Source: Phaeodactylum tricornutum CCAP 1055/1
Taxonomy: Eukaryota; Bacillariophyta; Bacillariophyceae; Surirellales; Neidiaceae
Direction: 5' to 3'
DNA length: 64,000 bases
Assembly: GCF_000150955.2 (NCBI RefSeq)
Contig: NC_011688.1
Span: 372,001-436,000 of the forward strand
Numbering within the stretch: position 1 is the first letter of the stretch; each line of letters opens with the position of its first letter. Below, piece by piece: positions 4,469 to 5,291 of the stretch. The translations under genes and the position numbers were made by a program. Below the pieces are notes generated by a model. That model had not been told where the DNA came from and did not search any database. It saw nothing but the letters and a program-made list of their open reading frames with translations.

Positions 4469-5291
4469 TCAAGGAGTATACATTTTGGCAAAGGTGTCGA
4501 TGGCAGAATCCAATGCATCGCAGGCAGCTACGTCCATACCTTGTTTGGCTTTCATGGCACATTGCATGACTGCATGATGGGCCTTAAGGGCCTCAACGTA
4601 ATCCTCGTCCGACTTGAAAACTTCTTTTTTGACTCGCTGGCAGAGGCAATACTCGGACACGGTCGTAATGATATGCTTGCAATGTTCTTCTTTGGTGTTA
4701 ATCCAACGAATCAATTGGTTCATGGCCAGAATGTTGTCACCAACTGTCGCGTGCAGTTCGTTCCCTTGCACCATAGCCTTCCGAATCGTGGAGGCATCTT
4801 GCCGAAGATGAGCGACGATCGCCGGATCGTCGAAAATACCGCAGGGAACTTGACAGTGTCCTCCGCGTAGACGCAAAACCAGGTGCAAAGTAGATTCCTT
4901 CTGGATGTTGTAATCAGAAAGGGTGCGACCGTCTTCGAGTTGTTTTCCGGCGAAAATTAAACGCTGCTGATCCGGAGGAATGCCTTCCTTGTCCTGGATC
5001 TTAGTCTTGACATTGTCAATAGTATCCGAAGGTTCAACATCTAGTGTGATAGTCTTACCAGTCAAAGTTTTGACAAAAATCTGGAAAAGACGGGTTGATG
5101 TAGTGGGAGCAAAAGTCAGCTTTCTGTGTCAATAATTTGTAATCGTAGGAGCTCGTACGCATCTTACGTGAAGACGTTCGGACCCAATTGTGATTTGCCT
5201 TCCGTGCCGCAAAAGCAACCCTTTTGGTCGCTTCCGTGGACAAAACGAGACACACCACAACAACAAAACAAATTCACCCACGTACCTGCAT
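4469..5291 (-). CDS. sodN: Ubiquitin-nickel superoxide dismutase fusion
   Basis: Exon 1 is only ATGCAG (5291-5286, Met-Gln). After a 205-nt GTACGT...AG intron, exon 2 (5080-4469) starts IFVKTLTGK, giving 205 residues. Residues 1-76 are a complete ubiquitin ending LRLRGG. Residue 77 onward reads HCQVPCG and then a helical domain of 129 residues. This is the nickel-hook motif of NiSOD (H-C-x-x-P-C-G): His77, Cys78 and Cys82 become His1, Cys2 and Cys6 of the mature enzyme. NiSOD needs a free N-terminal His. In bacteria a propeptide is removed by the SodX protease; here a deubiquitinase cutting after Gly-Gly would expose it (inference). The enzyme dismutates superoxide to H2O2 and O2. No organelle signal is visible because ubiquitin occupies the N-terminus, so a cytosolic location is likely. 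Confidence 0.93.

What the first reader, a model, noticed from the sequence alone, without database searches (positions are those of the whole stretch)
4469..5291. Ubiquitin fused to nickel superoxide dismutase
The sequence shows a full ubiquitin ending LRGG joined directly to HCQVPCG, the NiSOD hook. NiSOD is inactive unless its His is N-terminal. Bacteria use a propeptide and a dedicated protease; here ordinary ubiquitin processing would supply the mature N-terminus, so the fusion solves the maturation problem with host machinery. Similar fusions have been noted in some marine algae, so the idea is not entirely new. It suggests transfer of a bacterial gene that became usable by fusion, and lets an iron-poor marine alga use nickel for superoxide defence.
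Basis: partly seen in the sequence, partly recalled or inferred. Interest (0 to 1): 0.85.

Follow-up and report, generated by a model that had tools for sequence, protein, structure and literature searches.

The report
Ubiquitin-fused nickel superoxide dismutase in diatom
A diatom gene makes a nickel enzyme that destroys superoxide with the protein tag ubiquitin fused to its front, so that ordinary tag-removing enzymes should expose the enzyme's essential first amino acid; the fusion is real but has been described in print before.

Summary
Observation confirmed. On the minus strand, ATGCAG (5291-5286), a 205-bp GT-AG intron and exon 2 (5080-4469) encode 76-residue ubiquitin ending LRGG, joined without linker to a 129-residue NiSOD starting HCQVPCG. 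Pfam finds both domains; the predicted fold ranks NiSOD first in PDB.

Already known: Bayer 2012 lists the Phaeodactylum tricornutum fusion, Groussman 2015 proposes cleavage at this junction, Sibbald 2019 maps it across algae. That the window is P. tricornutum is my inference.

Added here: (1) in the 79 nearest bacterial relatives kept, the hook mostly follows a signal-peptide-like leader (73 of 79; control sites 7 of 1,171), and SodX exceeds cut-off in 1 of 40 genomes searched. The alga swapped one general processing enzyme for another. (2) The ubiquitin half shares its intron site and excess synonymous codons with the genome's polyubiquitin gene. (3) Cleavage would leave N-terminal His, a type-1 N-degron (recalled), in a genome with two UBR1/PRT6-like boxes; nickel-gated stability is possible but untested.

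The parts
5286..5291 (-). Exon 1: ATGCAG, codons 1-2 of ubiquitin
   Evidence: Sequence; splice joins in frame
5081..5285 (-). Intron, 205 bp, GTACGT...TTTCCAG, phase 0 after codon 2; same site as the intron in the polyubiquitin gene on C8
   Evidence: Splicing inferred from sequence; no transcript examined
4859..5080 (-). Ubiquitin residues 3-76, ending LRGG
   Evidence: PF00240, 109.6 bits; identical in amino acids to the genome's canonical ubiquitin
4472..4858 (-). Nickel superoxide dismutase domain, 129 aa, beginning with the hook HCQVPCGIF
   Evidence: PF09055, 101.4 bits; predicted four-helix bundle, pLDDT 90.2, best PDB matches are NiSOD
4856..4861 (-). Gly76/His1 junction (codons GGA-CAC), the inferred deubiquitinase cut lying between 4859 and 4858
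   Evidence: Sequence; cleavage itself not tested, proposed in PMC4460010
4469..4471 (-). Stop codon TGA

Best explanation
This is a ubiquitin-NiSOD precursor gene of a diatom (inferred to be Phaeodactylum tricornutum). SHOWN: an intact gene that splices in frame on paper, with full ubiquitin, no linker, an intact nickel hook motif and a predicted NiSOD fold. INFERRED: after translation in the cytosol, general deubiquitinases cut after Gly76, releasing ubiquitin and a NiSOD whose first residue is His1, which with Cys2 and Cys6 binds nickel and makes the enzyme active. The ubiquitin does the job that a signal peptide probably does in the nearest bacterial relatives, namely leaving His1 as the exact first residue after cleavage by a general processing enzyme. 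The ubiquitin half came from, or has been exchanged with, the polyubiquitin gene.
For: Gene structure; both Pfam domains; canonical ubiquitin sequence, so a normal deubiquitinase substrate; 28 UCH-family matches and no SodX match in the genome; hook H1 C2 P5 C6 G7 kept in the 79 bacterial relatives and in the algal contig L002 (HCQVPCGI was one of six scan seeds, so this is partly built in); fold match, first 11 Foldseek rows all NiSOD with probability 1.00 and query TM-score 0.56-0.69; L002 has the same linker-free junction; signal-peptide-like leader in bacteria, 73 of 79 against 7 of 1,171 control sites; same intron site as polyubiquitin and 41-44 of 74 shared codons against about 35 in shuffles; published proposal of the same cleavage.
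Against: No transcript, peptide or activity was examined here. Foldseek E-values are weak (best 6.3e-3, none at 0.001 or below), phmmer of the single protein found no PDB sequence at E 0.001 and a 15-sequence profile reached the Streptomyces enzyme only at E 0.048, so the distance from the characterised enzyme is large. Tyr9 of the hook is Phe here, and the Groussman 2015 methods text gives a hook filter ending in Tyr, which this protein would fail; 7 of 79 bacterial relatives also have Phe. The model's first three residues have pLDDT below 50, so the hook geometry is not predicted.
Confidence: 0.9

Rival explanations
1. Beyond maturation (this adds to the best explanation and does not exclude it), the fusion sets enzyme level by nickel: cleavage exposes His1, a type-1 N-degron, so apo-enzyme with a loose N-terminus is degraded by a UBR1/PRT6-type ligase, while nickel-loaded enzyme buries His1 and survives.
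For: Mature first residue would be His. Of four UBR boxes over cut-off in the genome, the two strongest are nearest to UBR1/PRT6 structures, and both keep the three acidic positions that I recall as D118, D150 and D153 of human UBR1 (numbering and role recalled). Short life of Ub-His reporters in yeast and hook disorder in apo-NiSOD are recalled. Groussman 2015 suggests in general terms that ubiquitin pathways may control NiSOD abundance (passage).
Against: No direct data. The hook may fold or bind nickel before recognition; hexamer assembly might hide His1 regardless of metal. The other two UBR boxes were not compared, and the ligase genes were not assembled.
Confidence: 0.2
2. The fusion works mainly as an expression and folding aid, like ubiquitin on ribosomal proteins, and supplies free ubiquitin; exposing His1 is a by-product.
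For: Ub-S27a and Ub-L40 exist in the same genome, and a review calls the meaning of the NiSOD fusion unknown (passage).
Against: The junction is exactly at the residue that must be N-terminal, in both algal genes seen here; the leaders of the bacterial relatives also appear to end exactly there.
Confidence: 0.08
3. Ubiquitin is not removed and the fused protein does something else.
For: None found here.
Against: Canonical LRGG end followed by His, and many deubiquitinase-family matches; a blocked His1 cannot form the known hook (recalled).
Confidence: 0.02

Closest known systems
Algal ubiquitin-NiSOD fusion (Bayer 2012 PMC3329448; Groussman 2015 PMC4460010; Sibbald 2019 PMC6332867)
   Same: Same architecture and junction; Bayer lists Phaeodactylum tricornutum XP_002183736 as having both domains (passage). 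Its Table 7 SOD counts for that species (Cu 1, Fe/Mn 2, Ni 1) equal those in this genome, if the two neighbouring Cu/Zn stretches on C21 are one gene.
   Different: Nothing in the architecture. The intron site shared with polyubiquitin and the signal-peptide-like junction of the bacterial relatives were not in the passages that I read.
Streptomyces NiSOD (SodN; PDB 1T6U, 1Q0D)
   Same: Hook HCxxPCG and four-helix bundle fold.
   Different: Profile match to it is weak (E 0.048); position 9 is Phe in place of Tyr; it is made by SodX cleavage of a propeptide (recalled), not from a ubiquitin fusion.
Signal-peptide NiSODs of Planctomycetota, Verrucomicrobiota and others
   Same: Closest bacterial sequences: 42-53% identity in the best segment for L003-L081; first eight hook residues the same in 79 of 79 (partly a result of the scan seeds).
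   Different: Signal-peptide-like leader ending at the hook (73 of 79 by three criteria); no ubiquitin.
Ubiquitin-ribosomal protein fusions Ub-S27a and Ub-L40
   Same: Ubiquitin precursors cut at Gly76 (recalled).
   Different: No intron after codon 2 in this genome, and no significant codon sharing with the NiSOD-linked ubiquitin (34 and 32 of 74).

Membership tests
Nickel superoxide dismutase (SodN) | Nickel hook HCxxPCG | tested here: met
   HCQVPCG directly after Gly76
Nickel superoxide dismutase (SodN) | Sod_Ni sequence family | tested here: met
   PF09055 101.4 bits, cut-off 25; but NCBIfam sodN 28.8 bits, under its cut-off of 90
Nickel superoxide dismutase (SodN) | Four-helix bundle fold | tested here: met
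   Four helices, pLDDT 90.2; best Foldseek rows are NiSOD, probability 1.00 but E above 0.001
Nickel superoxide dismutase (SodN) | Tyr9 of the hook | tested here: not met
   Phe9 here and in L002; 72 of 79 bacterial relatives have Tyr, 7 have Phe. Not a metal ligand (recalled); a Y9F mutant structure exists (3g4x)
Nickel superoxide dismutase (SodN) | His1 N-terminal in the mature protein, nickel binding and SOD activity | not testable with these tools
   Needs protein
Ubiquitin precursor fusion | Complete ubiquitin ending LRGG, cleavable by deubiquitinases | tested here: met
   76 residues as in the genome's own canonical ubiquitin; cleavage itself not tested
SodX-matured NiSOD | Propeptide and SodX protease gene | tested here: not met
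   Ubiquitin in place of propeptide; no TIGR02754 match at E 0.001 in the genome

The most novel reading that the evidence does not exclude
The fusion makes NiSOD a metal-gated protein: deubiquitination gives both the nickel ligand and an N-degron at the same residue, His1, so that only nickel-loaded enzyme escapes the N-degron pathway. The ancestor's signal peptide kept that degron out of the cytosol; the move to the cytosol by ubiquitin fusion created a built-in quality control.
Probability: 0.18. Interest if true: 0.75.

Novelty: already known. Interest (0 to 1): 0.35.

Why it matters
It is a clear case of an enzyme whose first residue is its metal ligand being matured by whatever general N-terminal processing enzyme is at hand: probably signal peptidase in the nearest bacteria, deubiquitinase in algae. 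It also raises a direct test of how a cytosolic enzyme that must begin with His avoids the eukaryotic N-degron pathway.

Tried and rejected
Viral relatives: two stretches matched a pattern in IMG/VR but none was confirmed; none among phages; one distant plasmid gene, 38% identity. A bacterial donor: the tree of 79 bacterial sequences plus the two algal ones pairs the algal rows (100/99) on a branch of length 1.19. It groups that pair with five bacterial rows at 92/71 only, three of them flagged as long branches; the root is at the midpoint and the bootstrap had not settled (132 columns), so I claim no donor. The scan kept the best 80 of 411 confirmed relatives, and no row of the tree is titled as a cyanobacterium or Streptomyces, so the 79 are not a sample of all NiSODs. 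Because HCQVPCGI was one of the six scan seeds, invariance of the first eight hook residues is partly built in; position 9 is outside the seed. A recent capture of the polyubiquitin intron: the two introns have no real similarity (205 and 350 bp), so the shared site is old or the introns have drifted. Independent fusion in L002: its intron lies elsewhere (codon 8, phase 1) and its ubiquitin differs (E16, S19, A28, A57), but concerted evolution of ubiquitin explains this as well, so one origin is not excluded. An iron-sparing role: not testable here.

SodX control: the TIGR02754 search was given 40 of the 79 bacterial loci. 26 of 40 genomes had a match at E 0.001, one of these over cut-off (G033); 4 of 14 control genomes matched below cut-off. 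I take most sub-cut-off matches to be signal peptidases or other relatives (inference), but three lie in short frames of 96-100 aa (G021 50 bits, G036 40.2, G029 27.6; behind L024, L060, L043) and could be divergent SodX. No genome known beforehand to hold SodX was run as a positive control. Signal-peptide control: the 1,171 sites are random points in stop-to-stop frames of at least 150 aa in six frames, so many are not genes; the criteria are my own simple ones, not SignalP.

Full report
What is there. The window lies in a 27.45-Mb genome of 88 contigs, at C20:372001-436000. From that size, contig number and contig lengths I infer Phaeodactylum tricornutum (recalled figures; no call names the organism). 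On the minus strand, exon 1 is ATGCAG at 5291-5286, the intron runs 5285-5081 (GTACGT...TTTCCAG), and exon 2 runs 5080-4469. The joined frame encodes 205 residues: ubiquitin 1-76, then 129 residues beginning [11 protein letters not shown]. Read without splicing, the frame stops after MQVRG.

The two halves. Pfam gives ubiquitin (109.6 bits) and Sod_Ni (101.4 bits). The ubiquitin is the genome's own: 100% identical over 76 residues to five of six polyubiquitin units and to the Ub-S27a and Ub-L40 units, 99% to the first polyubiquitin unit, whose alignment starts at the intron edge. It is therefore no decayed remnant. The NiSOD half is a divergent branch: NCBIfam's sodN model scores under its cut-off, phmmer against PDB sequences finds nothing at E 0.001, and a 15-sequence profile reaches the Streptomyces enzyme only at E 0.048. 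The predicted structure (pLDDT 90.2, four helices) nevertheless has NiSOD chains in all of its first 11 Foldseek rows, probability 1.00 and query TM-score 0.56-0.69, with E-values of 6.3e-3 to 6.4e-2; none of the 513 matches reaches E 0.001. The first other protein (row 12) is a designed protein with TM-score 0.46.

The hook. His1, Cys2, Pro5, Cys6 and Gly7 are kept in the 79 bacterial relatives and in the algal contig L002; HCQVPCGI was among the six seeds of the scan, so this is partly built in. Position 9, outside the seed, is Phe in the window and L002; 72 of 79 bacteria have Tyr and 7 Phe. A Y9F mutant of NiSOD has been crystallised (3g4x). The Methods of Groussman 2015 define the hook as ending in Tyr (passage); this protein would not satisfy that text.

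The genome-contig scan confirmed 411 relatives and kept 80. One, L002, is a mislabelled eukaryotic contig (see below). In the other 79, the residues before the hook look like a Sec signal peptide: 76 have a hydrophobic core, 78 have fitting residues at -1 and -3, 77 have an upstream Met with Lys/Arg, and 73 have all three; of 1,171 random sites in other long frames of the same loci, 7 have all three. SodX reached its cut-off in 1 of the 40 genomes I searched (out of 79 loci); three more have short-frame matches below it that could be divergent SodX. So in this branch a general enzyme, signal peptidase, most likely exposes His1 in most members (inference from sequence). A 2025 paper uses the signal peptide of a NiSOD of Roseiconus lacunae to search for proteins that begin with His (passages), so the signal-peptide type of NiSOD is known in print. 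I did not see the link to the algal fusion in the passages I read; searches for NiSOD with signal peptide and sodX, or with signal peptidase, returned no paper, but the early bacterial surveys (Dupont, Schmidt; cited) were not read. On this reading the alga exchanged signal peptidase for deubiquitinase, and the cell envelope for the cytosol.

Host machinery. The genome has 28 UCH-family deubiquitinase matches (exons counted apart) and no SodX match. It has one Ni match, two neighbouring Cu/Zn stretches taken as one gene, and two Fe/Mn matches, the counts that Bayer 2012 gives for P. tricornutum.

Where the ubiquitin half comes from. The polyubiquitin gene on C8 has an intron at the identical place, ATGCAG|GTAAGC...TTTTTTAG|ATTTTC, while Ub-S27a (C7) and Ub-L40 (C15) have none there. 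At the codon level the NiSOD-linked ubiquitin shares 41-44 of 74 codons with the six polyubiquitin units (shuffles about 35; frequency of reaching the observed value 0.0004-0.022) and 34 and 32 with Ub-S27a and Ub-L40 (0.19 and 0.31). Codon bias common to strongly expressed genes could add to this: Ub-S27a also shows a mild excess with polyubiquitin (0.03-0.10) and with Ub-L40 (0.04). With the intron, the reading is that this half came from, or has been exchanged with, the polyubiquitin locus. The introns themselves are not similar. Sibbald 2019 reports concerted evolution of ubiquitin fusions with polyubiquitin in two other algae (passages).

L002. PBTU01000001.1, titled Verrucomicrobiales, carries a ubiquitin-NiSOD gene with an intron in ubiquitin codon 8, phase 1, and is eukaryotic by that content. 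Its NiSOD domain is 63% identical to the window's. The two pair at 100/99 on a long branch.

Prior knowledge. Bayer 2012 (passages) lists P. tricornutum XP_002183736 with both domains. Groussman 2015 (passages) reports NiSOD transcripts in 45 diatom species (85%), the majority of the detected NiSODs being fused to ubiquitin, marks the proposed cleavage site, and suggests that ubiquitin pathways may control NiSOD abundance. Sibbald 2019 (abstract, section 6 part 1, passages) finds the fusion in B. natans, G. theta and 114 other eukaryotes. The fusion, its host and its maturation idea are in print.

What is left open. Cleavage yields a cytosolic protein starting with His, which eukaryotes read as a type-1 N-degron (recalled). 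Of four UBR boxes in the genome, two are nearest to UBR1/PRT6 structures, and the acidic residues that I recall as human D118, D150 and D153 are kept in both. Either the folded enzyme hides His1, or nickel does. The second case would make nickel a stability switch. Searches for 'nickel superoxide dismutase' with 'N-end rule' and for 'NiSOD' with 'N-degron' returned one paper each, neither on this point in the passages seen. The idea is untested.

Verdict.

Noticed in passing
L002 (PBTU01000001.1), 430-1275: A contig filed under a Verrucomicrobiales genome is eukaryotic: ubiquitin-NiSOD with an intron, beside BolA, ribosomal S6 and SDR genes. A mis-binned algal contig in a reference genome set.
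   Followed up: yes
window 1879-3796 +: Ankyrin-repeat frame 2357-3796, convergent with the NiSOD gene; a frame at 1879-2277 may be its upstream part, with an intron or frameshift between them (inference).
   Followed up: no
window 6986-10474 -: Large frame with a NopRA1 domain (nucleolar pre-ribosomal protein), probably part of a longer gene.
   Followed up: no
G000:C15 (L088) and G000:C7 (L087): Ub-L40 in this genome reads LRGG-VYDPSL, and Ub-S27a LRGG-GKKRKKK; both lack the intron after codon 2 that polyubiquitin has.
   Followed up: partly
window 4832-4834 -: Hook position 9 is Phe, as in L002 and 7 of 79 bacterial relatives; a published hook filter ending in Tyr would miss such proteins if applied as written.
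   Followed up: partly
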